Source: a virus. From it: a stretch of 29,013 nucleotides of DNA. The notes beneath the pieces were generated by a model, which had not been told where the DNA came from, ran no database searches, and saw only the letters and a program-made list of their open reading frames with translations. The position numbers and the translations under genes are program-made. This document shows positions 1 to 29,013 of this stretch, in pieces. The stretch is taken from positions 1 to 29,013 of the IMG/VR virus record IMGVR_UViG_3300032224_000217. One strand, 5' to 3'. Every line of letters begins with the position of its first letter. Positions within the stretch are counted from its first letter, which is position 1.

Positions 1-123
1 TAATAGGGAACTTAAAGTAATTGTTTAACTAACCGATGATAAAGCAGTGATATTCAAGGATATAGAAATGCATACTACAAATGTCGCAGAATTGAGTTAT
101 TAAGATATGACTAATGATCTCAA
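1..123. repeat. Terminal direct repeat, left copy
   Basis: Bases 1-123 are identical to bases 28891-29013. The copy begins with the stop codon of the terminase large subunit gene and ends just inside the 53-aa gene that starts at 107. Reading across the junction gives ordinary gene spacing, so the simplest view is a circular or circularly permuted genome whose assembly kept an end overlap. A true short direct terminal repeat on the packaged DNA is the alternative and cannot be excluded from sequence alone. Confidence 0.95.
93..100 (+). promoter_or_regulatory. TGAGTTAT element upstream of the 53-aa gene
   Basis: TGAGTTAT followed by TAAGAT lies 7 bases before the ATG at 107. It is a variant (TGAGTTATTA rather than TGAGTTATAT) of the word found before the tape measure, scaffold and portal operons. 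It may be a late promoter core for the tail operon. This is inference from recurrence and position, and this copy is the weakest of the four. Confidence 0.35.
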
Positions 124-268
124 TGAAATGATAACGGTAGTGCAGGCATATATCCTGGAGAAAACAGGTAAGAAGGTGCGTATTGAATTTAATAATGTAA
201 GGAGATTCAGTGAGCACTTTGAGATGTTGAGAGCTGCCTACCATCATGTAATGAATGAAAGAAAATGA
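107..268 (+). CDS. Small hypothetical protein after terL (53 aa)
   Basis: This is an open frame of 53 codons from ATG 107 whose TGA overlaps the ATG of the next gene (ATGA at 265-268), which is the coupling style used throughout this genome. The product begins MTNDLNEMITVVQAYILEK and is a basic, mostly helical-looking protein with no signal peptide or membrane segment. I do not recognise a family. Its place between terL and the tail chaperone gene, and its tight overlap with the latter, suggest a role in tail or head assembly, but that is context only. It is complete at the left end of the window and truncated in the right-hand repeat. Confidence 0.6.
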   Translation: MTNDLNEMITVVQAYILEKTGKKVRIEFNNVRRFSEHFEMLRAAYHHVMNERK

Positions 269-1026
269 AACTAGATTTAACCGTACCTGAGAGCATAGCA
301 GAGATACCATTAGTGAACTATCAGAAATTCCTAAAGGTACAGCAGAATAGTAATGATGAGGAGTTCATAGCTCAAAAGATGATTGAGATATTCTGTGGCA
401 TTGAATTAAAGGATGTGGCTACCATTAAGATTAAGGATATGAATAATCTGGTAGAACACTTCAATAAGATATTCTCAGTTAAGCCTAAATTTTATCAGAC
501 GTTCAAATTAAAGGAGATGGAGTTCGGATTCATTCCTAACCTAGAGGAGATATCATGGGGTGAGTATATAGATTTAGAGCATCACCTCAATGACTGGGAA
601 GGATTCCACAAAGCAATGGCAGTTATGTACCGGCCCATTACAAAGAAACATAAGGATAAGTATGAGATAGCTCCATACACTGCAGGGGAGGAATTCCATG
701 AGCTCATGAAGTATATGCCTATGGAGATAGCTATTTCTGCAAGGGTTTTTTTTTATCATTTAGGGAACGAGTTATTAAACTCTACCCTGTCCTATTTGGA
801 GAGCCTGATGAACAAGAAGCCGAGCAGAAGGCAGAGGAGGACTTCTCAGAAAGGGGACAATTTGCTAAGCAATGGGGTTGGTATACTTCAATATATGCAG
901 TCGCTAAAGGAGATATCACAAAGTTTGATGAAGTTACCGGATACGGACTACATCAATGTCTCACCTATCTCACCTTCGAAAAGCAGAAAACAGAAATTGA
1001 ACAAAGAGAATTTAATAATAGAATGA
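265..1026 (+). CDS. Tail assembly chaperone-like protein, zero-frame product (253 aa)
   Basis: The first ~175 residues look like a conserved protein of Bacteroidota phages: an N-terminal helical region, a segment around SWGEYIDLEHHL, then MAVMYRPI and a hydrophobic FFYHLGNELL stretch. Its size, its place among tail genes and the frameshift signal make a lambda gpG-like tail assembly chaperone the best guess; such proteins bind the tape measure before tube polymerisation. At 746-754 there is a run of nine T. After it, the zero frame stays open to 1026 but its tail is rich in Lys, Ser and Arg and looks poorly folded, whereas the -1 frame gives a much more protein-like sequence to 1034. The functional long form is therefore probably made by frameshifting. 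ATG 265 is fixed by the ATGA overlap with the previous gene. The chaperone assignment is moderate; existence of the gene is near certain. Confidence 0.72.
   Translation: MKLDLTVPESIAEIPLVNYQKFLKVQQNSNDEEFIAQKMIEIFCGIELKDVATIKIKDMNNLVEHFNKIFSVKPKFYQTFKLKEMEFGFIPNLEEISWGEYIDLEHHLNDWEGFHKAMAVMYRPITKKHKDKYEIAPYTAGEEFHELMKYMPMEIAISARVFFYHLGNELLNSTLSYLESLMNKKPSRRQRRTSQKGDNLLSNGVGILQYMQSLKEISQSLMKLPDTDYINVSPISPSKSRKQKLNKENLIIE
747..753 (+). promoter_or_regulatory. Candidate -1 ribosomal slippery heptamer T TTT TTT
   Basis: In the frame of the gene starting at 265 the codons are GTT TTT TTT TAT, so bases 747-753 form T TTT TTT, a canonical X XXY YYZ heptamer for -1 slippage. Shifting here joins 163 zero-frame codons to 93 codons of the -1 frame, which ends at the TGA at 1032-1034 overlapping the next ATG. 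I did not identify a convincing downstream stem-loop by eye. An assembly error in the T9 run would give the same appearance. Confidence 0.6.
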
Positions 1027-1034
1027 AAAAATGA
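753..1034 (+). CDS. -1 frame extension of the tail assembly chaperone (gpGT-like C-terminal part)
   Basis: Read in the -1 frame, bases 753-1031 encode 93 residues, including an acidic DEQEAEQKAEEDF linker followed by QWGWYTSIYAVAKGDITKF, then LHQCLTYLTFEKQK. This compact, Trp-rich domain resembles the C-terminal part of homologous phage proteins as I remember them. Its stop codon overlaps the ATG of the next gene as ATGA at 1031-1034, matching the coupling used across the genome. Both points argue that this frame is the expressed one. It lacks its own convincing start, so it should be made as a fusion of about 256 aa after -1 slippage at 747-753. The zero-frame and frameshift products would be almost equal in length (253 and 256 aa), which is unusual for a G/GT pair. 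Confidence 0.65.
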   Translation, partial: LSFRERVIKLYPVLFGEPDEQEAEQKAEEDFSERGQFAKQWGWYTSIYAVAKGDITKFDEVTGYGLHQCLTYLTFEKQKTEIEQREFNNRMKK

Positions 1035-1486
1035 CCGGATACTACACACTAATAAAAGCACTAAAGGATCACTTTGATAATGATGTGCTAGTTAATACAG
1101 TTACTAATGGGGATATCTTTGATATAGATATAGCTAAGCAAACTATCTTCCCATTGGTACACACTATGGTAACACAAGCTCAATTCGAGAGTAACATCCA
1201 AAGATTCACACTGACATTATTCTGCATGGATATAGTGGATGCTGTAAAGGTGGAGGATGATACTAAATGGGAGACAAAGGATAACACTAATGATGCATTG
1301 AATTCTACACTGCAGATTCTAAATAGAGCCTATCAGATGCTACTGCATGGAACACTGCATGACCTTAACTTCCATGTAGACAATGTACCTACCTGTGAGC
1401 CATTCACTGAGAGATTTGAGAATAACCTAGTAGGATGGGCTATGACCTTAGATATCATTTGTCCTAATGACATGACTATCTGCTAG
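1031..1486 (+). CDS. Probable tail terminator / tail completion protein (151 aa)
   Basis: The product is 151 aa of mixed alpha/beta character with segments VTNGDIFDIDIAKQTIFPL and ERFENNLVGWAMTLDI. It resembles a conserved small tail protein of Bacteroidota phages; size and position before an HK97 gp10-like gene fit a tail terminator, which caps the tail tube and joins it to the neck. ATG 1031 overlaps the TGA of the -1 frame of the preceding gene, and its own TAG abuts the next ATG with no gap. No catalytic motif is seen. The family role is inferred from neighbourhood and size, not from a decisive motif. Confidence 0.6.
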   Translation: MTGYYTLIKALKDHFDNDVLVNTVTNGDIFDIDIAKQTIFPLVHTMVTQAQFESNIQRFTLTLFCMDIVDAVKVEDDTKWETKDNTNDALNSTLQILNRAYQMLLHGTLHDLNFHVDNVPTCEPFTERFENNLVGWAMTLDIICPNDMTIC

Positions 1487-2005
1487 ATGGACCAACAGGA
1501 AACATACAAAGCATTAAAGGCATTTAGGGACCATGTAGTCAAGCAGGCTAGAAGTAACTTAACAAGGCAGGGAAAGAAGAGCTCAGGCAAGCTATATGAT
1601 TCCATTGATGGTGAGGTGAAGGCCATGCCTAACAGCATAGGTATCTACTTTGAGATGGAGCAGTATGGTGCATTTCAGGATAAAGGGGTAAATGGTGCTC
1701 AAAGGTCATGGGGTGCTCCCTACTCATTTAAGAGTAAGATGCCACCAATGAGTAAGCTAGATAAATGGATAGTCAGAAAGGGCATAGCTCCCAAAGATGA
1801 GAATGGTAGATTCATTAAAAGAAAGAGCTTGCAATTCCTGATCGCTAGGAGTATCTTCAGGAAGGGTATTAAGCCTAGCCTATTCTTTACTAAGGCATTT
1901 GAATCGGCATACAAAAAGCTACCAGGTGAGTTAATTAATAAGTACGGATTAGATGTTGAGGAGCTAGTAGCACAGGCATTAAAAGAAATAAGTAAAAAGA
2001 AATGA
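1487..2005 (+). CDS. HK97 gp10-like neck / head-tail joining protein (172 aa)
   Basis: The 172-aa product is basic, with an N-terminal helix of ~35 residues, a central beta segment containing YGAFQDKGVNG and APYSFKSKMPP, then LDKWIVRKGIAPKD and a C-terminal FLIARSIFRKGIKPSLFF. The x-YGxFxDxGV-x motif and the later IARSI..KGI..S.FF pattern are typical of HK97 gp10-like proteins, which join head and tail at the neck. It overlaps the next gene by four bases (ATGA at 2002-2005). The assignment is by motif memory without a search. Confidence 0.72.
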   Translation: MDQQETYKALKAFRDHVVKQARSNLTRQGKKSSGKLYDSIDGEVKAMPNSIGIYFEMEQYGAFQDKGVNGAQRSWGAPYSFKSKMPPMSKLDKWIVRKGIAPKDENGRFIKRKSLQFLIARSIFRKGIKPSLFFTKAFESAYKKLPGELINKYGLDVEELVAQALKEISKKK

Positions 2006-3093
2006 TAAGGATATTTGCACGTTCACCATATATTGTATCAATAAATGATGCATCTCAGACTGGGAGTAAATTAGAACTTTATATCTATGATGGGAGCAGC
2101 ACTCCTCCAGGTACTCCAACGTATACACTAAGCAAGCTGATACCAGGTACAGGAGTAACTGAGAATCTATATAATATCAGCCCATATTTAAGGGAGTATA
2201 TGACACATAGATATAATGGGTTAAACTATAATACAGTCAATGATTTAACTGAGTATGATGAGTATACCTATGTCCAATACAAAACATATAACCTAATCAG
2301 TGGAGTATATGTGCTAGATAGTACAATTACTGCTAGATGTTATGATGGATTCGGATACTATGAGGACCTGATGAATGTGGATAGAGGGGATGTATTACTA
2401 GGTAATGGTACAAAGCACTACTACTGGTATGATTCAACTAATACTCCTGCATCTACTGGCTCACAAAGAGCAGGTATAGTTACTGCCTACATGGGTAGAG
2501 ATTGGTCCGTATATCGTCAGAATCTATTGAATGGCTCACTCACTCAGATAGATACATACAATACTGCAGGGGTATATGATTTATACCGGGTATTCCCTAC
2601 ATGGTATGGAGCAGGTAACCTGATGCAGATATATGATGATTCAAACGTGCTGCAGTGGGAAGCTACATTCATCCCTAAGATAGAGTGCAGATATACTCCT
2701 ATGACTATTGATTTCATTAACAAGTTCGGTGGATGGCAGAGAGAGTTTTTCTTTAAGGCATCTCAGGAGATACTAGATGTGAACAGCACTACCTATAATC
2801 TCATGATGAGTGATATCCTACCTATGACATTGAGTGAGGGGCAGAGAGCAGTGTTTAATAATAACGGCATACGTAAGTATGTAATTAATACCGGATGGGT
2901 AGATGAGAGCTATGGCGAAACTATGCAGGAGCTTCTACTTAGTGAGAGAGTAATATGGCAGGATAGCAATAAGAGGGTGCCTGTAAAAGTGAATACTAAG
3001 AGTATCAATAAGCAGAAAAATATCAATAATAAGACTATCAATTATTCTATAGAGATAGAGCTAGCATTTGATGTTATTAACTCAGTGATCTAA
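2002..3093 (+). CDS. Tail structural protein, baseplate/distal-tail-like (363 aa)
   Basis: The protein is beta-rich and Tyr/Asn-rich, without membrane segments. Its first ~100 residues look like a beta domain (IRIFARSPYIV, LELYIYDG), the middle contains YYWYDSTNTPASTG, and the end carries PVKVNTKSINKQKNINN followed by a strand ending AFDVINSVI. This C-terminal signature recurs in structural tail proteins of flavobacterial phages. It starts on an ATGA overlap and shares one base with the next gene, a 694-aa tail protein, and the tape measure follows after that. A tail-tip or baseplate hub role is likely; the precise Dit or Tal identity cannot be fixed. Confidence 0.6.
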   Translation: MIRIFARSPYIVSINDASQTGSKLELYIYDGSSTPPGTPTYTLSKLIPGTGVTENLYNISPYLREYMTHRYNGLNYNTVNDLTEYDEYTYVQYKTYNLISGVYVLDSTITARCYDGFGYYEDLMNVDRGDVLLGNGTKHYYWYDSTNTPASTGSQRAGIVTAYMGRDWSVYRQNLLNGSLTQIDTYNTAGVYDLYRVFPTWYGAGNLMQIYDDSNVLQWEATFIPKIECRYTPMTIDFINKFGGWQREFFFKASQEILDVNSTTYNLMMSDILPMTLSEGQRAVFNNNGIRKYVINTGWVDESYGETMQELLLSERVIWQDSNKRVPVKVNTKSINKQKNINNKTINYSIEIELAFDVINSVI

Positions 3094-5177
3094 TGAAGAG
3101 ACAAGTAAGAGTATTCATAGAAGGTCAGCAGCTCGACCTATTTAATGATGAGCAGATTCAGGTATCCTCCAGTGTACAGAATGTATACGATATCAGCAAG
3201 AGCCATACAGATATAAGTCAGTCATTTACTGTACCAGGTAGTGCTAAGAATAATAGGATATTTCAACACTTCTATGAGAATGCTGTAGATGGCTCACTAG
3301 ATTATGGGCTCAGAAGGGATGGATATATAGAGATAGATTTAACTACATTTAGAAAGGGCAGGATATCATTAGAGAAAGCTACCCTAACCAATGGTAAGAT
3401 AGAAAATTATACTATCACATTCTATGGTAAATTAGTTAGCTTAAAGGATATCTTTGGTGATGATAAACTCAGTGATTTAGACTATTCTTCCATTAGCCAT
3501 CTATTCACATGGACTGAGGTATATGGTAGAGTTAGAGGCACGATTAGTGATGATGTAGCATATCCATTGATTACGTCTAATAGGTTATGGGAGTACGTAG
3601 CTGTACCTGCTAATTTTAACTTCCCTAACTGGCTAACATCTACATTAACTAATAATAATATAAACATAAGTTCAGGAGCCATTAACGTACTCAATGAGTT
3701 ATTCCCTGCAGTTAGGGTGAGCACTATTTTTACCCTGATCATGGCTAAATATGGGTTAAACTTTTCTAGCAACTTCTCAGGCACTGAACAATTTTATCAG
3801 GCATTCCTTTGGTTTAAGAATAGGGATGTAGTGAAGGCTAATACATTGGCTAACTATATAGATTTTGATACACTAACATCCAACACTATAGTAGATATAG
3901 ATACTAGCCAATATGTAGATACTGGATTGAATAGTATTAACGTAGTATATCAGCCTGCATTTGCTACTTACCATAGAATCACATTAGATGTAATATCAGT
4001 GAGCAGTACTACCGTTAACTATTGGGTGGATATATATGTTAATGGAGTGCTGTTAAGTACATATGGGGGTAATAATGGTACGCTAAATGGGGTATCAGGA
4101 TATACTACAGTATATGGTAACACAAATGTATCAGGATTAAATGATACTGTACTCATGAAGGTTAGAGCAGATGGAGCTCTGACTATTGATTTTAACATGA
4201 AATACCGAATCAATGATGGTGGTATAGTTAATGAGAGTACTTACTCATGTGTAGCTCAGAACTTAGTACAGTTCATTGACCTATCCATATGTGCTCCTGA
4301 CATGAAGATAACGGATTTTTTTAGTGGAGTGTTAAAGCAATTTAACATGATAGTGGAGAATACAGGTGAGAATGACTACAGGATAGAGCCATTACTAGAA
4401 TGGTATGCATCAGGGAATGTATATGATATCACCAGGTATACAGATGCTACTACTATTGAGATAGCTAAGGTGCCATTATACAAGCAGATATCATTTAGGT
4501 ATCAGCCATCTGAGAGTGCTCTAAATAAGAAGTATCTGCAGTTATCTCAGAAGGAATATGGGAATACTGACTACCAATATCCATATGAGGGTGCAAACTA
4601 TGAAATTCAGTTACCATTCGAGAATTTAATGTTCAGCCAATATGATCTTTCAGGTAGTCCTACTGGATTACAGGTAGGATTCTCAGTGAATAGTTCATTG
4701 GCTCCATACGTACCTAAGCCTGTGATACTATATAAGTATGGTACGGTTACAGGGCTACCACATAACATATATTTTAAGGATGGTGCTGGGAATACAGGGA
4801 ATACTCCGCAGTATGTAATGTTCGGACAGGACATAACCGATAGTCATACAGGTATAGATTACTCTTTGAACTTTGCACCTGAGACATCTACCTATCATAG
4901 ATATGCAATTCAGCAGGGATTATTCGCTGCTTACTACTACCAATATCTATATAATTTATATAACATAAAGAATAGGCTAAGTACTTATAAAGCTATTCTA
5001 CCTATATCTTTACTCACTGGATTAAAGCTAAATGATAGGGTGATCATTAGAGATAAGAGATATATCATTAACGACATGAATTGTAACCTAACTACAGGTG
5101 AGGTAACATTAAGATTATTAAATGACTTCATGCCAGTTAGCCCATCCGATATTATACCACCATTACCAGAAGAATGA
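3093..5177 (+). CDS. Large tail-tip / baseplate protein (694 aa)
   Basis: The 694-aa product opens with a beta domain (QVRVFIEGQQLDLF) followed by a conserved-looking DISKSHTDISQSFTVPGS segment typical of a Bacteroidota phage tail protein. The central part (roughly residues 180-400) is Ser/Thr/Asn-rich beta sequence, and the C-terminal third holds DMKITDFFSGVLKQF and ends with a beta hairpin and a Pro-rich tail. It has no signal peptide, membrane helix or visible hydrolase motif. Position between a tail protein and the tape measure fits a tail-associated hub. Its stop overlaps the ATG of the 58-aa gene that follows. Confidence 0.62.
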   Translation: MKRQVRVFIEGQQLDLFNDEQIQVSSSVQNVYDISKSHTDISQSFTVPGSAKNNRIFQHFYENAVDGSLDYGLRRDGYIEIDLTTFRKGRISLEKATLTNGKIENYTITFYGKLVSLKDIFGDDKLSDLDYSSISHLFTWTEVYGRVRGTISDDVAYPLITSNRLWEYVAVPANFNFPNWLTSTLTNNNINISSGAINVLNELFPAVRVSTIFTLIMAKYGLNFSSNFSGTEQFYQAFLWFKNRDVVKANTLANYIDFDTLTSNTIVDIDTSQYVDTGLNSINVVYQPAFATYHRITLDVISVSSTTVNYWVDIYVNGVLLSTYGGNNGTLNGVSGYTTVYGNTNVSGLNDTVLMKVRADGALTIDFNMKYRINDGGIVNESTYSCVAQNLVQFIDLSICAPDMKITDFFSGVLKQFNMIVENTGENDYRIEPLLEWYASGNVYDITRYTDATTIEIAKVPLYKQISFRYQPSESALNKKYLQLSQKEYGNTDYQYPYEGANYEIQLPFENLMFSQYDLSGSPTGLQVGFSVNSSLAPYVPKPVILYKYGTVTGLPHNIYFKDGAGNTGNTPQYVMFGQDITDSHTGIDYSLNFAPETSTYHRYAIQQGLFAAYYYQYLYNLYNIKNRLSTYKAILPISLLTGLKLNDRVIIRDKRYIINDMNCNLTTGEVTLRLLNDFMPVSPSDIIPPLPEE

Positions 5178-5350
5178 TACATCACATAATACAGATGCTA
5201 AGCATCACAGAACACTATGGCCAGAGTGAGCTCATAGAAATTGCTAAGGGAAAGTATGCCATTGAAACTAAAGTAAAGAGGGTATACAAACAAGCCATGC
5301 GTGAGTTATATATGAAAGGACTAAGGAATGGCACAAACGGTAACAGTTAA
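5174..5350 (+). CDS. Small hypothetical protein before the tape measure gene (58 aa)
   Basis: ATG 5174 overlaps the stop of the preceding gene as ATGA, and the frame runs 58 codons to TAA 5350, overlapping the tape measure gene by 23 bases. The peptide is helical and basic at its C-terminal half (KVKRVYKQAMRELYMKGLRNG). I do not recognise it. The double overlap supports translation. The same DNA (5302-5311) holds the TGAGTTATAT word, so it may carry both coding and promoter information. Confidence 0.6.
   Translation: MIHHIIQMLSITEHYGQSELIEIAKGKYAIETKVKRVYKQAMRELYMKGLRNGTNGNS
5302..5311 (+). promoter_or_regulatory. TGAGTTATAT element upstream of the tape measure gene
   Basis: TGAGTTATAT lies inside the 58-aa gene, ending 16 bases before the tape measure ATG at 5328. 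The identical word precedes the scaffold gene (8792) and the portal operon (11118). Recurrence just ahead of three late genes suggests a late promoter or other late regulatory element; no constant second box was found at a fixed distance upstream. Confidence 0.45.
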
Positions 5351-7682
5351 TTTAGAGGTTAAGGATAACACTAAGAGCTTAAAGGCACAGCTAAAAGAGG
5401 CACAGGCTGAGGTAGCTGCATTGGCTGATAAGTATGGTGCTGCATCTGCACAGGCTACTCAGGCTGCGAGGAAAGCTGCTGAACTTAAAGATAGGATAGG
5501 TGATGCTAAGGCATTAACTGATGCATTTAATCCGGATGCTAAATTCAAGTCATTCACTGCTACATTGAGTGGAGTAGCAGGTGGATTCTCTGCAGTGCAG
5601 GGTGCTATGGGATTAGTAGGAGCTGAGGGTGAAGAGGTGCAGAAGATGATGCTAAAGGTGCAGAGTGCTATGGCTATCTCACAGGGATTGCAGGCATTAG
5701 GTGAGGCACAGGATTCATTCAAACAATTAACTTCTGTAGTAGGTGAATTCGTTACCAACCTATTCAAAAAGAATGCTGTAGAGGGAACTGGAGTAGCTAT
5801 TACTGAGGCTAGTGTAGTAGCAACTGAGGCAGAAATAATAGCAACGGAAGCAGAGGCTGTAGCTACTACTGAGGCCGCAGTAGCACAGGAGGGATTGAAT
5901 GCTGCTATGGCTATGAATCCCGTAGGTGCTCTAGTGTTAGCAATAACTGCATTAACTGCAGGATTAGTATATTACTTCTCATCTGCTGATAAGGCTACCA
6001 GTGCTAGTGAGAAAATGGCTAAGCAGAAAAAAGAAGCAGAAGAGGCATCAAAGAAACAGAGCCAGGCAATAGCTAAAGAATCTACTGAGTTCGTAGGATT
6101 GATATATCAATTAAAAGCTACCAATGCAGGTAGTAAAGAAAGAGCTGATTTAATCAAAAAGATAAATGGTACATATAATACTACCTTAAAGAATCTATCT
6201 GATGAGGCAGCATTCCAGCAACAACTAAATGCTGAGGTAGCTAGTTACATAGCATATCAAAAGGCTAAGTATGAACTAGCAAAAAATGAAGATAAGATCA
6301 CTACTAACCTGGAGAAACAGGATGAAATTAGAAAGAAACTAAATATCAGTCAAAAGGAACTAGATAGATTAAACGAAAAGAAAAAGAATCTACCTGCTGA
6401 TTATTTAGGGATAGGCCAATTAAACCAACAGATAGAAGATCAGACTAAAAAATTAAATACTTATCAGGAGCAGTTAGATGCAGCTAATGAGAGATTAGAA
6501 AACTATGGTAAGGTAGCACTGGATACTAATGGAGTCATAGCTGAGATAGAAGGTACTAATGGTAAATTCAATACTTCGTTAAAGAAAACTGGAGATACTG
6601 CAGGAGATACTGCAGGAGAGATTAAAGATTATGCAGTAGATCTAAATAACTACTTAGATGCTATTGAGGCAGATAGGCAGGGTAGATTATCTGATGCAAG
6701 AGCAAGAGAAGAGCAAGAGGTATCTAACCGGTATGAGAAATTATATGAACTAGCAGATAAGGCAGGAATAGATACTGCAGATTTGCAGAAAAAACAGGGT
6801 ATTGAATTAGGAGAGATTCGTAAAAAATATCAGAAGTTAGCAGATGATGAGAATCTTAAGCTAATGCAGGCGATGGATGATAAGGATACTCAAATGTTCC
6901 TTAAATCTGAGCAGATTAAAATAGATGCTATGAAGGATGGTATTGATAAGCAGGCCGCCATCCGCAAACTAGCATATGATAGGGGACAAATAGAACTGCA
7001 GAATCAGTTAGATGCTGAATTAATTACATATGAGGATTTTCAAACTGCATCTATAAATAATTTCAAAGCCTATCAGAATGCATTATCTGCAACTAATAAG
7101 GATGCTAATAAGGAAAGAAAGGAAGATGATCAGGCAGTATATGAGCAAAAGTTAGCACTGCAGAATAAGTATGCAGATATAGCTATACAAGCTGCCAATT
7201 TATTAAAGGATACACTGGGTAAAAGTAAGGCAGCTCAAAAAACTGCAGTTATTATAGAGAGTGCTGCAGGTATTGCTAAGATGATTATAGCTAATAAGCT
7301 AGCAAACATGGGAGCATTGGCTACTCCGCAGGCTATTGCTTCATCAGGGGTATCTGCTGCCCCTGTTATTGCAGCTAATAACATATCATTAGGATTAGGT
7401 ATAGCTGCCAACATAGCTGCAACTGTTAAGGCATTGAAAGAGATAGGAGGAGGAGGTAGTGTACCTAGTGGTGGAGGTACAGGTGGAGGTGGAATGGCTG
7501 CCGGTGGAGGAACAGGTACAGGTACAGGAGTAAATGCACCCAATTTCAACGTGGTAGGTAATAATGGTATTAATCAGTTAGCACAGTTACAACAGCAACC
7601 TGTTAAGGCATACGTGGTAGGCTCAGAAGTATCTACTCAACAGGCATTAGATAGAAATAGAATAACAAACGGAACACTATAA
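5328..7682 (+). CDS. Tail tape measure protein (784 aa)
   Basis: The 784-aa product has the build of a tape measure: an Ala/Lys/Glu-rich N-terminal coiled-coil region (about 1-60), a hydrophobic stretch near 192-217 (PVGALVLAITALTAGLVYYF), long charged coiled coils through roughly 225-400 and 470-650, and a Gly-rich low-complexity segment near 707-732 before a short C-terminal end. Tape measures set tail length and enter the cell with the DNA; at about 1.5 angstrom per residue this one would suit a tail of roughly 110-120 nm. There is no obvious peptidase or lytic transglycosylase domain. It overlaps the 58-aa gene upstream, and its TAA (7680-7682) shares one base with the next ATG. Confidence 0.88.
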   Translation: MAQTVTVNLEVKDNTKSLKAQLKEAQAEVAALADKYGAASAQATQAARKAAELKDRIGDAKALTDAFNPDAKFKSFTATLSGVAGGFSAVQGAMGLVGAEGEEVQKMMLKVQSAMAISQGLQALGEAQDSFKQLTSVVGEFVTNLFKKNAVEGTGVAITEASVVATEAEIIATEAEAVATTEAAVAQEGLNAAMAMNPVGALVLAITALTAGLVYYFSSADKATSASEKMAKQKKEAEEASKKQSQAIAKESTEFVGLIYQLKATNAGSKERADLIKKINGTYNTTLKNLSDEAAFQQQLNAEVASYIAYQKAKYELAKNEDKITTNLEKQDEIRKKLNISQKELDRLNEKKKNLPADYLGIGQLNQQIEDQTKKLNTYQEQLDAANERLENYGKVALDTNGVIAEIEGTNGKFNTSLKKTGDTAGDTAGEIKDYAVDLNNYLDAIEADRQGRLSDARAREEQEVSNRYEKLYELADKAGIDTADLQKKQGIELGEIRKKYQKLADDENLKLMQAMDDKDTQMFLKSEQIKIDAMKDGIDKQAAIRKLAYDRGQIELQNQLDAELITYEDFQTASINNFKAYQNALSATNKDANKERKEDDQAVYEQKLALQNKYADIAIQAANLLKDTLGKSKAAQKTAVIIESAAGIAKMIIANKLANMGALATPQAIASSGVSAAPVIAANNISLGLGIAANIAATVKALKEIGGGGSVPSGGGTGGGGMAAGGGTGTGTGVNAPNFNVVGNNGINQLAQLQQQPVKAYVVGSEVSTQQALDRNRITNGTL

Positions 7683-8593
7683 TGAAAATAATTGAATTAA
7701 TTTTAGATGAGAAGGATACCGAGATGGGAGTATATGCGGTATCTGTAGTAGATGAGCCTGCCATAGAAGAGAATTTCATAGCACTAAGCAAGCAAAGCAT
7801 AGAACTGGCTACCATTGATAAGGAAAAAAAGCTACTCATGGGGCCTGCATTGATACCTAATAAGCAGATTTATAGAAACAATGAGAAGCATGGGGAGTTC
7901 TATATCTACTTTAGTGAGGATACAGTACGCAAAGCCAGTGAGATGTTCTTTATCAATAGCAACCAGAGTGCTGCTACCTATGAGCATGATCATAAAATAG
8001 ATGGCATGACTGTGGTAGAATCATGGATAATAGATAATCCTGAGAAAGATAAGAGTGCAGCCTATGGATTCTCACTACCTAAAGGTACGTGGATGATTAG
8101 CATGAAGGTGAATAATCCGGATGTATGGAAAAAAGTTAAGGATGGAGATGTAAAGGGATTCTCTATTGAGGGATATTTCGCAGATAAGTATGAGATGAGC
8201 ATGGAGATGGCTATGCGTAAAGCTATGGATGAGGAGAAAGAATATCTCATAGAGCAGATTAAGAAGGTCCTCAAAGGTCAAGACCTGGAAGAGGTAAGCT
8301 ATAATGACTATCCATCCGTAGTGAGAAGGAATGCACAGAGAGGTATATTACTTAATGAGAGAAATGGCAATAAATGTGCTACTCAGGTGGGCAAAATTAG
8401 AGCTCAGCAGTTAGCCAATGGTGAGAAGGTGAGCATGGAAACCATTAAGAGAATGTACTCCTACCTATCCAGAGCTGAGGTATATTATAATCAGGGAGAT
8501 AGTAATGATTGCGGATATATATCATACCTATTATGGGGAGGGAAGGCAGCATTATCATGGGCAGAATCTAAAATAAAACAAGCAGAACAATGA
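7682..8593 (+). CDS. XkdF-like prohead protease with C-terminal extra domain (303 aa)
   Basis: Residues ~1-170 match the putative phage serine protease XkdF pattern: an N-terminal DTEMGVYAVSVVDEPAI, a TYEHDH motif with His102/His104, and DVKGFSIEGYF with Ser161, the likely nucleophile. After a charged linker (175-205), residues 207-300 form a second compact domain with YPSVVRRNAQRGI, NGNKCATQVGKIRAQQLANG and SYLLWGGKAALSWA. That second domain is one I associate with phage head proteins as a movable C-terminal module of unknown role. The gene lies just before scaffold and capsid genes, the usual place for a prohead maturation protease, which cuts scaffold and capsid during head assembly. Confidence 0.78.
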   Translation: MKIIELILDEKDTEMGVYAVSVVDEPAIEENFIALSKQSIELATIDKEKKLLMGPALIPNKQIYRNNEKHGEFYIYFSEDTVRKASEMFFINSNQSAATYEHDHKIDGMTVVESWIIDNPEKDKSAAYGFSLPKGTWMISMKVNNPDVWKKVKDGDVKGFSIEGYFADKYEMSMEMAMRKAMDEEKEYLIEQIKKVLKGQDLEEVSYNDYPSVVRRNAQRGILLNERNGNKCATQVGKIRAQQLANGEKVSMETIKRMYSYLSRAEVYYNQGDSNDCGYISYLLWGGKAALSWAESKIKQAEQ

Positions 8594-8769
8594 AACGTAA
8601 AGAATCAAAGAGCTCACCTAAGGGTGGGAAGAGAGGATGCCTATGCAAGGATGGCACCTACAATGTTAAATGCTGTGATGGCACACTACCTGCACAGGGA
8701 ATAGGTGATATCAACACTGAGAATCCGGGTAACATTACTCAGATAATACAGGTGAGGCAGATTAACTAA
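8590..8769 (+). CDS. Small Cys-rich phage protein (59 aa)
   Basis: The frame starts at ATG 8590 (ATGA overlap with the protease gene) and runs 59 codons. It has a Lys/Ser/Gly-rich start and then two cysteine pairs, GCLCKDGTY (Cys17, Cys19) and VKCCDG (Cys28, Cys29), followed by LPAQGIGDINTENPGNIT. The spacing C-x-C ... C-C ... AQGIG looks like a small conserved protein of Bacteroidota phages. The cysteines could bind metal or form disulfides. Position between protease and scaffold suggests a minor head component, but its role is unknown. Confidence 0.7.
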   Translation: MKRKESKSSPKGGKRGCLCKDGTYNVKCCDGTLPAQGIGDINTENPGNITQIIQVRQIN

Positions 8770-8791
8770 AATGGAACAAGTAATTTATTAA

Positions 8792-8801
8792 TGAGTTATA
8801 T
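8792..8801 (+). promoter_or_regulatory. TGAGTTATAT element upstream of the scaffold/capsid operon
   Basis: TGAGTTATAT sits in the 42-base gap between the Cys-rich gene and the scaffold gene, ending 10 bases before the A-rich leader and ATG 8812. It is the only one of the TGAGTTATAT copies in a clean gap directly ahead of the highly expressed capsid genes, which makes it the strongest candidate late promoter element. Confidence 0.5.
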
Positions 8802-8811
8802 ATAAAAAAAT

Positions 8812-9426
8812 ATGAAAGAATCTATTTTATCACGTATCTCTGCACTTCTCGGGATGGAGAAGGTAGAACTAGCATCCATGAAGTTAATGGATGGAGTAAC
8901 TGTACTAGAGGCTGATGCATTTGAGCCGGGTATGGAAGTATTTATTGTTACTGAGGATGAGCAACGTATTGCTTTGCCGGTAGGTGAGTATGAGTTAGAG
9001 GATGGGAATATGTTAGAAGTAACTACTGAGGGAGTTATTGCTGAGATTAAAGCTCCAACTGCTGAAGAGGAAGCTCCAACTGCACCAGGTGAATCTACTG
9101 AGCCTACTACTGAGCCTATGGCACCAATGATGGAGGAGCAAATGGCTGAGGAAGGCACTCCTTCTCAACCAAAGAAAGTAATTAAATCTCAAATTGAAGA
9201 GATGTTATTCTCTAAAATTGAAGAATTAAAAGCAGAGAATGAGAGCTTGAAAGCACAACTATCTGAGCAGCCTGTAGTAGAAGAGGCTCCTGTAGTAGAG
9301 GCTGAGGCTGCTGCTAAACCTATCTCTCATAACCCTGAAAAACAAACTGCTGTACCACAGTTTACATTTGGTGCAAATAGAAAGGAGACTACTATGGATA
9401 GAATCCTAAATAAATTGGCTAACTAA
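8812..9426 (+). CDS. Probable capsid scaffold protein (204 aa)
   Basis: The product is very acidic. Residues ~1-85 form a small beta domain (FEPGMEVFIVTEDEQRIALP, then GEYELEDGNMLEV), residues ~85-125 are a Glu/Pro/Thr-rich linker, residues ~125-150 form a predicted coiled coil (MLFSKIEELKAENESLKAQL), and the basic C-terminal end (NRKETTMDRILNKLAN) could contact the capsid protein. It lies directly upstream of the major capsid gene and next to the protease. These are the features of a head scaffold, removed during maturation. The leader TATAAAAAAATATG is A-rich, as is usual for strong starts in Bacteroidota. No search was possible, so a capsid-decorating role is an alternative. Confidence 0.65.
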   Translation: MKESILSRISALLGMEKVELASMKLMDGVTVLEADAFEPGMEVFIVTEDEQRIALPVGEYELEDGNMLEVTTEGVIAEIKAPTAEEEAPTAPGESTEPTTEPMAPMMEEQMAEEGTPSQPKKVIKSQIEEMLFSKIEELKAENESLKAQLSEQPVVEEAPVVEAEAAAKPISHNPEKQTAVPQFTFGANRKETTMDRILNKLAN

Positions 9427-9446
9427 AATTAAAATAAAAAAAACAA

Positions 9447-10412
9447 ATGGCAACTTCAATTACAACTACTTATGCTGGAGAGTTCGCAGGGAAATATGTA
9501 TCTGCTGCTCTTCTTTCTGCTCCTACCATTGAGAATGGTGGAGTAACTGTACTTCCTAATGTACACTACAAACAAGTTATTCAAAAAGTATCTACAGATG
9601 CTATCTTGAAAAACTCTACTTGTTCATTCTCTGATGTATCTACTGTTACATTAACTGAGAAAGTATTAATTACTAAAGATTTACAAGTAAATTTAGAACT
9701 TTGTAAAAAAGATTTCTTCTCTACATGGCAAGCTGCTGAGATGGGATTCAGCTCATTCAAAACTTTACCTAAATCTTTTGCTGATTATTTAATCGCTTAT
9801 GCATCTAATAAAGTAGCTGCTAACGTTGAGACAGCATTCTGGACAGGTGCTACAGGTACTTCTGGTAGCTTTGATGGTATTTCTACATTGGTAGCTTTAG
9901 ATGCTGCTTTACCTCCTGCACAAGAGGTAGCTGGTACTTCTGTAACTGCTTTGAACGTAGTTACTGAGTTAGGTAAAATTGTAGATGGAATTCCTGCTTC
10001 TCTTTATGGTAATCCTGATTTACGTATCTATGTATCTACTAACATCGCTAAGGCATATGTACGTGCATTGGGTGGATTCTCTACAGTATCAGGTGCTTCT
10101 GCAGCAGTTACTCCAGGAACAGGTGTTAACAACCAATCTACTACATGGTACTCTAATGGATCATTGAGCATTGATGGAGTAGAGATATTCTGGGCTCCAG
10201 GATTAGCTAACAACACAGCTATCGCAACTCTTTCTACTAACTTATTCTTCGGTACTTCTGTACTTTCGGATTTGAATGAAGTTAAAGTTATTGATATGTC
10301 TGATGTTGATGGATCACAAAATGTACGTGTTATCATGCGTATGGCTGGTGGTGCTCAGTATGGTGCTGTAGAAGATATCGTTACTTACGGTATTGTTAAC
10401 TCTGCTAACTAA
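9447..10412 (+). CDS. Major capsid protein, HK97-fold-like (321 aa)
   Basis: The 321-aa product has the order expected of an HK97-type capsid protein: a flexible start, a long helix-containing middle (KKDFFSTWQAAEMGFSSF), and a C-terminal beta-rich part ending GGAQYGAVEDIVTYGIVN. It follows protease and scaffold genes. Codon choice differs from most of the genome: TCT, ACT, GCT and CTT dominate here where TCA, AGC and CTA are common elsewhere, as expected for a very highly expressed gene. The leader AAATAAAAAAAACAAATGG is strongly A-rich with no Shine-Dalgarno, as in Bacteroidota. A hairpin follows the gene at 10427-10448. Confidence 0.86.
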   Translation: MATSITTTYAGEFAGKYVSAALLSAPTIENGGVTVLPNVHYKQVIQKVSTDAILKNSTCSFSDVSTVTLTEKVLITKDLQVNLELCKKDFFSTWQAAEMGFSSFKTLPKSFADYLIAYASNKVAANVETAFWTGATGTSGSFDGISTLVALDAALPPAQEVAGTSVTALNVVTELGKIVDGIPASLYGNPDLRIYVSTNIAKAYVRALGGFSTVSGASAAVTPGTGVNNQSTTWYSNGSLSIDGVEIFWAPGLANNTAIATLSTNLFFGTSVLSDLNEVKVIDMSDVDGSQNVRVIMRMAGGAQYGAVEDIVTYGIVNSAN

Positions 10413-10426
10413 TAATTAATAATCAT

Positions 10427-10452
10427 GGGGAGTGGGTAACTGCTCCCCTTTA
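10427..10452 (+). terminator. Weak terminator-like hairpin after the capsid gene
   Basis: GGGGAG (10427-10432) pairs with CTCCCC (10443-10448) across a 10-base loop and is followed by TTTAATA. The six-base GC stem is stable, but the T run is short, so this may attenuate rather than end transcription, or protect the capsid mRNA. It lies in the 53-base gap before the next gene. Confidence 0.55.
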
Positions 10453-10465
10453 ATACATTAAAGAT

Positions 10466-11041
10466 ATGCCTTGTTTTATTACACACGGAAGAACTGAACA
10501 ATGTAAGGATAGTATCTCTGGAATACAGGCACTATACCTTGTAAACTTCGGTGACTTCGATCCGGATCCATCTACATTAGGTGGTGATGTAACCTATGAT
10601 ACTACTGTAGGTTTTGAGGATCAAATTATTACCATTGGTGGTACTATTGCTTCTCTTTACAAATATGAGTTAAAAGGTAATAATGGATTCAATACTACCG
10701 TTAACACATCACGTGAGAATGGTACTACTTTCTTTACTCAGACTATTACTTGTGAGTTAAAGAGACAAGATCCAGTATTCCATAAACAATTTAAGATTTT
10801 AGCTTATGGTAGACCTCACGTAATTGTACGTACTAATGGAAACCAATTTTTCTTAGCTGGTCTTTACAGAGGATGTGATGCAACTTCTGGAAGCATTGAG
10901 AGTGGAGTAGCTTATGGTGATTTCAATGGTTACAAAATTACTTTTGAAGCTATGGAAGAGAAGCCTGCTAACTTCCTTGACTGTGGATCTGAAGCTGATT
11001 TACTTACTTTGCTAGGATCACCTACATTAGTTACTGCTTAA
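10466..11041 (+). CDS. Probable major tail tube protein (191 aa)
   Basis: The 191-aa product starts MPCFITHGRTEQCKDSISGI and contains ENGTTFFTQTITCELK, FKILAYGRPHVIVRTNGNQFF and GDFNGYKITFEAMEEKPANF. This layout of two beta sheets with a long extended loop fits siphovirus tail tube proteins, and the sequence resembles small structural proteins of Bacteroidota phages placed after the capsid gene. It shares the capsid gene's TCT/ACT/CTT codon bias and is closed by a strong terminator, both signs of high expression. No other protein in the window is a better tail tube candidate. A head decoration protein is the main alternative. Confidence 0.62.
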   Translation: MPCFITHGRTEQCKDSISGIQALYLVNFGDFDPDPSTLGGDVTYDTTVGFEDQIITIGGTIASLYKYELKGNNGFNTTVNTSRENGTTFFTQTITCELKRQDPVFHKQFKILAYGRPHVIVRTNGNQFFLAGLYRGCDATSGSIESGVAYGDFNGYKITFEAMEEKPANFLDCGSEADLLTLLGSPTLVTA

Positions 11042-11065
11042 TAACTAATCCTACATAGCGTGAAG

Positions 11066-11097
11066 AGCCCTGCCTTAATGGTGGGGCTTTTCTTTTT
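11066..11097 (+). terminator. Strong intrinsic terminator after the capsid/tube operon
   Basis: AGCCCTGCC (11066-11074) pairs with GGTGGGGCT (11080-11088) through nine base pairs including two G-T wobbles, with loop TTAAT, followed by TTTCTTTTT starting in the 3' arm. This is a textbook factor-independent terminator. It separates the capsid/tube transcript from the portal operon, which then needs its own promoter. Confidence 0.88.
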
Positions 11098-11117
11098 AGA
11101 AACATATTTTAATAATG

Positions 11118-11127
11118 TGAGTTATAT
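11118..11127 (+). promoter_or_regulatory. TGAGTTATAT element upstream of the portal operon
   Basis: TGAGTTATAT lies between the strong terminator and the ATG at 11132, ending 5 bases before that ATG. Since the terminator should stop reading from upstream, a promoter is expected in this short gap, and this repeated word is the obvious candidate. If the start site lies close downstream, the leader would be very short. Confidence 0.5.
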
Positions 11128-20659: not shown

Positions 20660-20863
20660 CCCATTATATGACGCTGTGCCGATTCTCTATATATACTACT
20701 CTATAAATTACTACTATGCACACATTAAAATTTTTGTTTTTTTATCGTCACATCGTCACGCAAAGGCTAAAACCTAATGCAGTATTGACTTGTAGACATG
20801 ACGCAAAATTATTTTTTCCGTCTTTTATTGTCTTATCATTGTCTTTTATTATATTTGTCCGCT
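20660..20863. other. Repeat-bearing AT-rich gap, candidate replication origin / control region
   Basis: This is the longest gap in the window that I leave without a gene (the full gap from 20609 is 255 bases). It holds CTATGCACA at 20714-20722 (one mismatch to the DnaA box TTATNCACA), two tandem ATCGTCAC units (20744-20759), two related CACGCAAAG/GACGCAAAA words near 20757 and 20799, and a direct repeat GTCTTTTATT at 20820-20829 and 20841-20850 spaced 21 bases, two helical turns, overlapping the promoter. It sits between a DnaA-like gene and the primase-helicase gene. Origin function is inferred; single DnaA-box matches are expected by chance in AT-rich DNA. Confidence 0.45.
20828..20857 (+). 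promoter_or_regulatory. Bacteroidota-type promoter for the primase-helicase gene
   Basis: TATATTTG (20850-20857) is an exact TAnnTTTG -7 box with TTG (20828-20830) 19 bases upstream. Transcription should start about 20861-20863, immediately before ATG 20864, which would make the message nearly leaderless. The GTCTTTTATT direct repeat overlaps both boxes, so a bound regulator could control it. Confidence 0.68.
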
Positions 20864-23230: not shown

Positions 23231-23688
23231 TGAAAAAAGAATATAAGGCACTGCTGCATGAGCTAAAAGTAAAGAGATATGCAGAAACTCACCCCAATTA
23301 TCCACCTGATTATATACCTAAAACCATGTACAAAGATTCAACAGCTAACGGATTAACAAGAGCCATCTGTGATTATATTAACTATCATGGATATCAGGCA
23401 GAACGTATCAATACAATGGGAACTGCTAGAGAAAAAAAGACTACAGCCGGTAAGGTGATCGGAGTAACCTGGACAAAGGGCACATCTACATCAGGAAGTG
23501 CCGATATATCTGCTACCATTAAGGGCCGTTCAGTTAAGATAGAGGTGAAGATAGGCAAAGATAGGCAGTCTGATGCTCAGAAGAGGTACCAGGAGAACAT
23601 TGAAAAGGCAGGAGGTACATACTACATCGCTAGAAACTTTGATGATTTTGTAGATTTTTTTAATGATTTTGTAAATAAGTGCAATTAA
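23230..23688 (+). CDS. VRR-NUC-type nuclease (152 aa)
   Basis: The C-terminal half holds a PD-(D/E)XK core of the VRR-NUC kind: GSADISATIKGRSVKIEVKI with Asp92, Glu105 and Lys107, then QSDAQKRYQENIEKAGGTYY. The N-terminal 90 residues include a helical stretch, TANGLTRAICDYINYHGYQAER, and a basic loop. VRR-NUC proteins act in DNA repair, junction or restriction-like cleavage; here it follows the primase-helicase directly (TAATG overlap), pointing to replication-fork or recombination processing. The protein is of normal size for a phage stand-alone VRR-NUC. Confidence 0.8.
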   Translation: MKKEYKALLHELKVKRYAETHPNYPPDYIPKTMYKDSTANGLTRAICDYINYHGYQAERINTMGTAREKKTTAGKVIGVTWTKGTSTSGSADISATIKGRSVKIEVKIGKDRQSDAQKRYQENIEKAGGTYYIARNFDDFVDFFNDFVNKCN

Positions 23689-23700
23689 TTTGTATATTTG
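23668..23700 (+). promoter_or_regulatory. Bacteroidota-type promoter for the recombination operon
   Basis: TTTG (23668-23671) and TATATTTG (23693-23700), spaced 21 bases, match the -33 and -7 elements. Initiation near 23704-23706 would give about a 20-base leader before ATG 23724. The -33 box lies in the end of the nuclease gene. No terminator separates this from downstream genes, so the transcript may continue to the sigma factor and terminase genes. Confidence 0.7.
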
Positions 23701-25751: not shown

Positions 25752-25956
25752 TGATCAGCAGATATCTGACTGGATGCGAAAAGAGATACGTAATAAGCTA
25801 TCTAAGAGGTACAAGCTCACACATCTATCTGAGGATATGAACGTAAATTATGCTAAGCTATATAGATTCATGCAAGGTAGGAATGTAACTACTGAGATAT
25901 ACGATAGCTTTTTTAGAGTATATTTACGTCAAAACTATGGCACACTGGGTAACTAA
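25723..25956 (+). CDS. Small HTH protein (77 aa)
   Basis: From ATG 25723, inside the SSB-like gene, there are 77 codons; ATG 25774 is a possible later start. The C-terminal 50 residues contain LSKRYKLTHLSEDMNVNYAK followed by LYRFMQGRNVT, a helix-turn-helix resembling Cro/XRE-like phage regulators. The first 15 residues (MRAVTIYLSDDQQI) may be a leader from the overlap. It ends 20 bases inside the sigma factor gene and may control it or the early genes. Confidence 0.65.
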   Translation: MRAVTIYLSDDQQISDWMRKEIRNKLSKRYKLTHLSEDMNVNYAKLYRFMQGRNVTTEIYDSFFRVYLRQNYGTLGN

Positions 25957-26470
25957 AGTAGTCAAGCATCATGATGAATGGGTGAAGATTGTTAACTCAT
26001 TCGGTGAGGAATTCTATGCAGAGGATATAGTGCAGGAGGTATACCTTCGCATTATGTCCTATTGCAGTGAATCACAGCTCATAGTGAATGACCAGGTGAA
26101 TAAACCATATATGTACTTCGTGCTCAGGAATACATTTCTAATCATGCATAGGGGATATAAGCCTACCATGACATCCATAGACCAGGCATATAACATTAGA
26201 GCCCATGAGGATATAACAGCTATGACTGAGGCATATCTTAAGATACAGGATAAGATAGATAAGGAGGTGAATTCATGGCACTGGTATGATCAGAAAGTAT
26301 GGCACATTTATAGAGATACCGGCATGAGTATCCGGAAGCTAGCCAAAGAGACTACCATTAGCCCTAAGAGCTTATTTGTTACATTAAAGCACTGTAAGAA
26401 TAGAATACATAACTCACTGAATGAGGATTACCAGGATTACATTAATAAAGAATATGAATTAATAGATTGA
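25937..26470 (+). CDS. Sigma-70-like RNA polymerase factor (177 aa)
   Basis: The product has a region-2-like N-terminal half (EEFYAEDIVQEVYLRIM, then YMYFVLRNTFLIMHR, residues 24-71) and a region-4-like HTH near 118-160 (WHIYRDTGMSIRKLAKET, then ISPKSLFVTLKHCKNRI). This is the layout of a compact ECF-style sigma factor, as found in Bacteroidota phages. It would direct host RNA polymerase to late promoters. It lies at the end of the replication module just before packaging genes, a natural place for a late switch. Region 2 is short and some key promoter-melting residues cannot be confirmed by eye. Confidence 0.76.
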   Translation: MAHWVTKVVKHHDEWVKIVNSFGEEFYAEDIVQEVYLRIMSYCSESQLIVNDQVNKPYMYFVLRNTFLIMHRGYKPTMTSIDQAYNIRAHEDITAMTEAYLKIQDKIDKEVNSWHWYDQKVWHIYRDTGMSIRKLAKETTISPKSLFVTLKHCKNRIHNSLNEDYQDYINKEYELID

Positions 26471-27353: not shown

Positions 27354-27710
27354 ATGAACAAAGAAGATAATTTAAGGCCTGCTTGGGGTAAAGGCGAAAG
27401 TGGAAACCCCGCAGGCAGACCAAAAGGAAGTAAGAACCGAAGTACAATCGCACGCCGTTGGTTGGAAGTAAATCAATCATTAAAGAATCCAATTACAGGC
27501 GAGAACGAAACAATGAGCCAAGAAGACTTAATGACTTTAGCGTTAATTAAAAAAGCGCGTGAAGGCGATGTAAACGCATACAAAGCGTTAATGGATAGCG
27601 GTTATGGTGCTCCCGTTCAACATGTGGAGCAGGAGACTAAGGTAGATATAAATAGTTTTAGAATTCAGGATGTGATAGAATTTAATGATACGCCTAAGCT
27701 CGAAGTATAA
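27354..27710 (+). CDS. DUF5681 protein, probable small terminase subunit (118 aa)
   Basis: The N-terminal WGKGESGNPAGRPKGSKNRS followed by TIARRWLEV is the DUF5681 signature, seen in small terminase-like DNA-binding proteins. The middle has MSQEDLMTLALIKKAREGDV and NAYKALMDSGYGAP, helical units as in TerS. It lies immediately upstream of terL and overlaps it by 26 bases, which favours a small terminase role that recognises the packaging site. Codons up to about 27615 (GCG, CGC/CGT, GGC, GAA) differ sharply from the GAG/AGA/AGG-rich neighbours, so that stretch looks acquired. A tiny frame MKAENDKDK (27306-27335) precedes it and is not called. Confidence 0.76.
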   Translation: MNKEDNLRPAWGKGESGNPAGRPKGSKNRSTIARRWLEVNQSLKNPITGENETMSQEDLMTLALIKKAREGDVNAYKALMDSGYGAPVQHVEQETKVDINSFRIQDVIEFNDTPKLEV

Positions 27711-28893: not shown

Positions 28894-29013
28894 TAGGGAA
28901 CTTAAAGTAATTGTTTAACTAACCGATGATAAAGCAGTGATATTCAAGGATATAGAAATGCATACTACAAATGTCGCAGAATTGAGTTATTAAGATATGA
29001 CTAATGATCTCAA
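28891..29013. repeat. Terminal direct repeat, right copy
   Basis: This is the exact second copy of bases 1-123. It contains the last codon (TAA) of terL, a short non-coding stretch, the TGAGTTATT element and the first 17 bases of the 53-aa gene. That small gene is therefore cut off at this end and complete only at the left end. Confidence 0.95.

What the first reader, a model, noticed from the sequence alone, without database searches (positions are those of the whole stretch)
93..11127. Repeated word TGAGTTATAT upstream of late genes: candidate phage late promoter
Seen directly: TGAGTTATAT at 5302-5311, 8792-8801 and 11118-11127, each 5-16 bases before the ATG of the tape measure, scaffold and portal-operon genes, and a variant TGAGTTATTA at 93-102 before the first gene after terL. 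The copy at 11118 lies between a strong terminator and a gene start, where a promoter is required. The only other TGAGTTAT I noticed is inside the large tail-tip gene (near 3694). The window lacks TAnnTTTG boxes before these late genes, while it encodes its own sigma-70-like factor (25937-26470). The inference is that this factor reads the motif. I could not find a fixed second box.
Basis: partly seen in the sequence, partly recalled or inferred. Interest (0 to 1): 0.7.

Follow-up and report, generated by a model that had tools for sequence, protein, structure and literature searches.

The report
Phage ECF-sigma late promoter, two-box
A small phage of Bacteroidota-type bacteria carries a repeated two-part start signal in front of its late (structural) gene blocks; relatives that carry the same sigma-factor gene have matching signals, so the phage probably makes its own key for switching on its late genes.

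Summary
The motif is real and is more than a 10-mer. All four reported copies have a second box exactly 16 nt upstream: ACA-N16-GTTAT, always with TGA before GTTAT. The window has four such sites on the coding strand, none on the other; the four other TGAGTTAT copies lack the upstream box. Over 24 representatives (window included), 48 of 92 upstream regions of five late-gene loci have ACA-N16-GTT[AT] or ATTG; 1 of 92 shifted controls and 0 of 69 regions before neighbouring genes do. The -10 box differs between clades but changes in concert at different loci of one genome. The window's sigma-like protein (25937-26470) is ECF-like; its profile matches 27 of 36 relative records, the nine misses being contigs of 22.2 kb or less. 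The cultured Nonlabens phage P12024S has a homologue before terL and seven AACA-N15/16-CGTTA sites, 7 of 7 just before gene starts. Early genes have host-type TTTG/TAnnTTTG promoters. The gap from -10 tetramer to ATG is exactly 7 nt in 26 of 48 sites, so many late mRNAs should be leaderless. No transcript has been mapped; sigma recognition is inferred.

The parts
74..79 (+). -35-like box ACTACA of late promoter P1 (ACA 77-79)
   Evidence: ACA-N16-GTTAT at 77; ACA also at this place in relatives L084 and L087
93..100 (+). -10-like box TGAGTTAT of P1, 7 nt from GTTA to the ATG at 107 (ORF 107-268, first gene after terL)
5283..5288 (+). -35-like box TATACA of late promoter P2, inside the coding ORF 5174-5350
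   Evidence: synonymous codons nearly frozen
5302..5309 (+). -10-like box TGAGTTAT of P2, before the tape measure gene (ATG 5328)
5174..5350 (+). conserved small ORF (58 aa) that overlaps the tape measure start and contains P2
8773..8778 (+). -35-like box GGAACA of late promoter P3
8792..8799 (+). -10-like box TGAGTTAT of P3, before the scaffold-like gene (ATG 8812) and capsid gene
11062..11092 (+). intrinsic terminator (13-pair stem) before P4
   Evidence: hairpin plus T run also seen in relatives
11099..11104 (+). -35-like box GAAACA of late promoter P4
11118..11125 (+). -10-like box TGAGTTAT of P4, 7 nt from GTTA to the ATG at 11132 (first gene before portal)
25937..26470 (+). ECF-like sigma factor gene (177 aa), proposed reader of P1-P4
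18671..18700 (+). host-type (Bacteroidota sigma-A) early promoter TTTG-N18-TATCTTTG
20828..20857 (+). host-type early promoter TTG...TATATTTG before the primase-like gene (likely start ATG 20864)
23668..23700 (+). host-type early promoter TTTG-N21-TATATTTG, upstream of the gene block that contains the sigma gene
27685..28893 (+). terminase large subunit, end of the block that contains the sigma gene

Best explanation
The four sites are late promoters of the ECF type, read by the phage's own ECF-like sigma factor on host RNA polymerase. Proposed course: (1) host sigma-A, through TTTG/TAnnTTTG promoters, transcribes early genes and the block with the sigma gene; (2) the phage sigma binds host core polymerase; (3) it opens promoters (A/T)ACA-N16-GTTAT at the heads of the tail (107), tape measure (5328), scaffold/capsid (8812) and portal (11132) blocks. 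At two of the four sites the GTTA box is 7 nt from the start codon, so those mRNAs should start at or within about 3 nt of the AUG. Shown: both boxes, spacing, conservation, concerted change, the sigma gene and its spread, the 7-nt gap. Inferred: that these are promoters in vivo, that this sigma reads them, timing, leaderlessness.
For: ACA-N16-GTTAT: 4 forward, 0 reverse in the window; shuffle mean 0.77, 10 of 1000 shuffles reach 4. All four are ACA-N13-TGAGTTAT, whereas the other TGAGTTAT copies (1 forward, 3 reverse) are not. Orthologous upstream regions keep both boxes while the spacer varies. In 24 representatives the ACA-GTTA spacing is 16 nt in 36 cases, next commonest 7. ACA-N16-(GTT[AT]|ATTG): 48 of 92 late regions, 1 of 92 shifted controls, 0 of 69 control-gene regions; spacings 12, 14, 18, 20 with GTT[AT] give 7, 2, 0, 0 of 92. 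Within-genome likeness of upstream regions exceeds between-genome likeness at 8 of 10 locus pairs. The site inside ORF 5174-5350 has the commonest codon in 133 of 139 motif-codon cases against 403 of 642 elsewhere. Sigma: NCBIfam ECF models match along its length; ranks 1-7 of Foldseek are ECF sigmas; profile found in 27 of 36 relative records, or 21 of 30 without the six tied to the sigma query. P12024S: sigma homologue E 8.7e-10, 7 of 7 forward AACA-N15/16-CGTTA sites 6-7 nt before annotated genes, 0 of 2 reverse. RAP44: no sigma match, 0 of 3 motif hits near a gene start.
Against: No transcript 5' end or binding assay. The -10 alternatives counted were chosen after reading the sequences. 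One of ten shifted-control pairs was also below 0.05 (scaf-g11132, p 0.012). In 8 of 24 representatives no locus has GTT[AT]/ATTG at 16 nt; two of them (L060, L076) have not even [AG]TT there. Several sigma-bearing records (e.g. G012, G014, G020) show no clear site with these patterns. The protein scores below the NCBIfam cut-offs, the AlphaFold model is moderate (pLDDT 72.9) and no Foldseek hit reaches E 0.001. Co-occurrence within one phage family could reflect shared descent. A per-genome EM failed to recover the motif.
Confidence: 0.85

Rival explanations
1. The element is a late promoter, but it is read by a host ECF sigma factor, or by host sigma-A with a phage activator, and the phage sigma serves other sites.
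For: Flavobacteria have several ECF sigmas; Flavobacterium psychrophilum has seven, and one motif (SM6) with a CGT -10 box (passages of PMC9723704).
Against: Clade-specific -10 boxes change together at different loci of one phage genome, which fits a reader that travels with the phage; the sigma is in all 25 relative records searched that are longer than 22.3 kb; RAP44 shows neither.
Confidence: 0.1
2. The element is a translation-initiation signal in the mRNA (Bacteroidota lack Shine-Dalgarno), not a promoter.
For: It lies close to start codons, often at exactly 7 nt.
Against: A second box at a fixed 16 nt with a variable spacer is promoter geometry; the distance to the ATG varies (7-24 nt) while the box spacing does not; it is absent before mcp, g10466 and portal starts (0 of 69).
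Confidence: 0.04
3. Chance recurrence of an AT-rich word, helped by codon usage.
For: With 2 mismatches the 10-mer is at chance level; the 5302 copy lies in a coding ORF.
Against: Shuffles, spacing, controls and conservation and 7 of 7 placements in P12024S.
Confidence: 0.01

Closest known systems
Phage-encoded sigma factors for late or middle genes (T4 gp55, SPO1 gp28 and gp33/gp34; recalled, not from a call)
   Same: A phage gene makes a sigma factor that redirects host RNA polymerase to phage-specific promoters.
   Different: Here the factor is ECF-like (two domains) with a two-box ECF-like promoter; T4 late promoters have a -10 box only and need a sliding clamp (recalled).
ECF sigma factors of Bacteroidota (TIGR02985, NF058625) and flavobacterial motif SM6 with a CGT -10 box (passages of PMC9723704)
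   Same: Sequence and fold likeness along the chain; short -10 box at fixed spacing from an AAC/ACA-type -35 box.
   Different: Below the NCBIfam cut-offs; carried by a phage a few genes before terminase; -10 boxes differ between clades. An anti-sigma partner was not looked for.
Nonlabens phages P12024S and P12024L (genus Inhavirus)
   Same: Homologous terL (57% identity), capsid protein (31.5%), a Sigma-70 region 2 protein shortly before terL, and (P12024S) bipartite sites before gene starts.
   Different: Box is AACA-N15/16-CGTTA; the spacer is one base longer in most sites. The GenBank record of P12024S calls the sigma a hypothetical protein containing Sigma-70 region 2 and lists no promoters.

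Membership tests
ECF (group 4) sigma factor | sigma-2 plus sigma-4 domains only, about 160-200 aa | tested here: met
   177 aa; NCBIfam ECF models aligned over residues 8-167 and 23-160; model residues 1-169 aligned to ECF sigmas, sigma-4 part at rmsd 2.6 over 68 residues to E. coli sigma-E
ECF (group 4) sigma factor | score over the curated cut-off of an ECF model (a naming threshold rather than a biological definition) | tested here: not met
   26.7 bits against 126.4 (TIGR02985), 21.7 against 42.9 (TIGR02937); therefore called ECF-like, not filed under a named subfamily
ECF (group 4) sigma factor | directs core RNA polymerase to a two-box promoter with AAC-type -35 and short -10 | not testable with these tools
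   Promoter geometry fits; the enzyme activity was not measured
Phage late sigma regulon | same motif at the heads of several late operons | tested here: met
   Four sites in the window, seven in P12024S
Phage late sigma regulon | sigma gene placed under early (host) promoters | tested here: inconclusive
   TTTG-N21-TATATTTG at 23668-23700 heads the block with the sigma gene at 25937; only one weak + strand terminator-like site (24813) between; in P12024S one lies before gene 19644, upstream of the sigma. Transcription itself not tested
Phage late sigma regulon | loss of sigma abolishes late transcription | not testable with these tools
Bacteroidota sigma-A promoter (TTTG / TAnnTTTG) | TAnnTTTG -7 box with TTTG about 20 nt upstream before the late genes | tested here: not met
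   Only the three early places have it on the coding strand

The most novel reading that the evidence does not exclude
A widespread family of small Bacteroidota phages carries an ECF-like sigma whose late promoters are fused to the start codon: -35, -10 and ATG at fixed distances (ACA-N16-GTTA-N7-ATG), so that most late operons begin with leaderless mRNA, in hosts whose own mRNAs are almost all leadered; and sigma and -10 box have diverged together from clade to clade, giving a natural set of mutually distinct sigma-promoter pairs.
Probability: 0.5. Interest if true: 0.72.

Novelty: new variant of a known kind. Interest (0 to 1): 0.62.

Why it matters
To my knowledge late gene control in phages of Bacteroidota is hardly studied. 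If true, a whole phage family can have its late operons and transcript starts read off the sequence; a cultured pair (P12024S/L with its Persicivirga/Nonlabens host) makes the claim directly testable; the clade-specific sigma and -10 boxes offer a natural series for working out ECF promoter specificity and orthogonal promoters for Bacteroidota; and leaderless late mRNAs would be a clear departure from hosts in which leaderless mRNAs are 5.5% (F. psychrophilum, passage of PMC9723704) or in which 87% of predicted leaders exceed 10 nt (F. johnsoniae, passage of PMC6847099).

Tried and rejected
Per-genome EM for a bipartite motif drifted to AT-rich or codon-like words in the window and relatives (the printed part; the output was cut) and was dropped; few true sites per genome. 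The unbiased dyad count recovered AACA/ACAA/TACA with TTAT, TATT, ATTG or GTTA among the top dyads in some genomes (e.g. G004, G003, G007, G010, G017, G031), but only weakly in the window itself (ACAA-16-TTAT, fifth) and not in many others; it is used only as weak support. In one search the patterns ACA-N14-TGAGTTAT and ACA-N14-NGAGTTA were written with the wrong gap and gave 0; one search corrected the first (N13: 4 forward, 0 reverse). DNA search of window 1-8000 in cultured phages found nothing, nor did tblastn of the window's sigma. Rfam found nothing. Sigma-70 TTGACA/TATAAT sites are at or below chance. A host was sought by the capsid protein in genome contigs: only a Bacteroidia MAG contig and a contig labelled Woesearchaeota, so the host phylum rests on TAnnTTTG and on P12024S. 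A TIGR02985 search of the relatives' records gave 22 of 36, none over the cut-off, and that family matched in 14 of 14 control genomes, so it is not specific. Literature: searches listed no paper on an ECF sigma or late promoter of Bacteroidota phages that I could recognise from title and abstract; the library lacks most subscription papers, and the P12024S/L genome paper (J Virol 2012, seen only as a reference) was not read. PMC8776804, PMC7198788 and PMC4615864 were only searched for words. The 24 representatives (window included) were picked by hand out of 69 loci with at least three of the five late genes, to spread over clades; many of the 69 are near-duplicates.
Full report
The window is a complete circular phage genome of 28,890 bp: bases 1-123 recur at 28891-29013. 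Longest-ORF calls put 99% of coding length on the + strand. Terminase, portal, tape measure, a protease and a primase-like protein were identified. The host is probably a member of Bacteroidota: early genes have TTTG/TAnnTTTG promoters, and the nearest cultured relatives by capsid and terminase are the Nonlabens phages P12024S/L.

Observation. The important addition is a second box. All four sites, including the variant at 93, read ACA-N16-GTTAT with TGA directly before GTTAT. Written as ACA-N13-TGAGTTAT, the window has exactly four forward and no reverse matches. The remaining TGAGTTAT copies (3695 on +; 26409, 17245, 14746 on -) have no ACA there. The -35-like hexamers are ACTACA, TATACA, GGAACA and GAAACA.

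Comparison. Upstream of the scaffold-like gene and of the gene before portal, close and many distant relatives keep both boxes while the spacer changes. Among 24 representatives (window included), chosen by hand from 69 loci, and five late-gene positions, the distance from ACA to GTTA is 16 nt in 36 cases; the next commonest distance occurs 7 times. ACA-N16-(GTT[AT]|ATTG) is found in 48 of 92 regions, against 1 of 92 in stretches 60 nt further upstream and 0 of 69 before mcp, g10466 and portal. The -10 alternatives were chosen after reading the alignments, so this is a description with controls, not a blind test.

Concerted change. If one trans-acting factor reads all sites of a genome, sites at different loci of one genome should resemble each other more than sites of different genomes do. 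Best ungapped likeness was higher within genomes at 8 of 10 locus pairs (permutation p < 0.05). For regions shifted upstream this was so in 1 of 10 pairs (scaf-g11132, p 0.012), and for pairs that include mcp, g10466 or portal in 0 of 9. Examples read: TGAGTTAT in the window's clade, AGTTAAT in L042, TTATTGTA in L065/L066. Genome counts agree: in G010 and G016 ACA-N16-ATTG lies near a gene start in 7 of 8 and 6 of 7 cases, and GTTA in 1 of 4 and 0 of 3; in the window GTTA does so in 4 of 5. Many other genomes show no clear site with these patterns.

The site at 5302. It lies inside a conserved small ORF (5174-5350) that overlaps the tape measure start. Over 31 distinct relatives with at least 50% identity, the commonest codon makes up 133 of 139 cases at the six codons under the two boxes and 403 of 642 at other conserved codons (per-codon table). 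This points to constraint on the DNA beyond the protein, so the site is probably real although it is coding.

The sigma factor. The 177-aa protein at 25937-26470 matches phrog_1740 weakly and NCBIfam ECF models along most of its length, below their cut-offs. The AlphaFold model is moderate (pLDDT 72.9). Its first seven Foldseek matches are ECF sigmas (SigL, sigma-E, AlgU) at E 0.0015 to 0.007, and VIA-align places both domains on ECF sigmas, Z up to 7.1, with the sigma-4 part at 2.6 A over 68 residues of E. coli sigma-E. A profile of ten members finds a relative in 27 of 36 relative records; the nine misses are all contigs of 22,224 bases or fewer. Six of the 27 (G020-G025) were fetched by, or share a contig with, the sigma query and match by construction; without them the count is 21 of 30.

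A cultured test bed. P12024S encodes a protein annotated as containing Sigma-70 region 2 shortly before the terminase gene; the profile matches it at E 8.7e-10. AACA-N15/16-CGTTA occurs 7 times forward and 2 times reverse (shuffle mean 0.58, maximum 4, forward strand). All seven forward sites, and neither reverse one, end 6-7 nt before an annotated start. This pattern was fitted to P12024S after reading its upstream regions. In Riemerella phage RAP44, with a related terminase, the profile finds nothing and none of three motif hits is near a gene start.

Start codon geometry. Among 48 sites the gap from the -10 tetramer to the ATG is exactly 7 nt in 26 and 8 nt in 2. It is 7 in 15 of 16 before g11132, 5 of 5 before g265 and 5 of 6 before the protease, but longer before tape measure and mostly longer before scaffold. 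In the window it is 7 at 107 and 11132, 13 at 8812 and 19 at 5328. Since ECF promoters start about 7 nt after the -10 box (recalled), such transcripts would begin at or next to the AUG. Host flavobacteria rarely do this: 5.5% of mRNAs in F. psychrophilum (passage of PMC9723704); in F. johnsoniae 87% of predicted leaders exceed 10 nt (passage of PMC6847099).

Model. Host sigma-A reads the three early promoters (18671, 20828, 23668). The third heads the block that contains the sigma gene. The sigma then directs host polymerase to P1-P4, which head the tail, tape measure, scaffold/capsid and portal blocks; P4 follows a strong terminator (11062-11092). Promoter identity is strongly supported, recognition by this sigma is indirect, leaderlessness is a prediction.

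Novelty. Phage sigma factors for late genes are long known (T4, SPO1; recalled). An ECF-like one with a family-wide two-box late promoter in Bacteroidota phages was not found in the searches, which cover only an open-licence library. I rate it a new variant of a known kind.

Noticed in passing
window 10427-10448 and the same place in relatives: A G+C-rich hairpin followed by T lies between the capsid gene and the next gene (GGGGAGTGGGTAACTGCTCCCC TTTAA) and recurs in distant relatives; possibly a partial terminator that sets capsid excess.
   Followed up: no
window 20850-20866: The TAnnTTTG box of the primase-like gene ends 6 nt before ATG 20864; gaps of 3-5 nt appear in several relatives and 4 nt in P12024S gene 19644, so some early mRNAs may be nearly leaderless as well, and the longest ORF start (20798) is probably wrong.
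   Followed up: partly
window 5174-5350: Small conserved ORF (58 aa) with a promoter embedded in its coding sequence and overlapping the tape measure start; 49 related loci by tblastn.
   Followed up: yes
window 8590-8769: Small conserved gene with a Lys-rich, Cys-bearing start (KRKESKSSPKGGKRGCLCKDG), 90 related loci by tblastn, function unknown.
   Followed up: no
window 8791-8805: The -10 box of P3 together with ATG 8791 forms a four-codon mini-ORF (ATGAGTTATATATAA) directly before the scaffold-like gene.
   Followed up: no
L134 (CP070803.1): A capsid relative (45% identity) lies in a chromosome labelled Candidatus Woesearchaeota; either a misassembly or mis-binned contig, or an unexpected host.
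   Followed up: no
OQ791282.1: A record named Shigella phage Henu10 carries a terminase at the same coordinates and identity as Riemerella phage vB_RanS_PT15; its host label looks doubtful.
   Followed up: no
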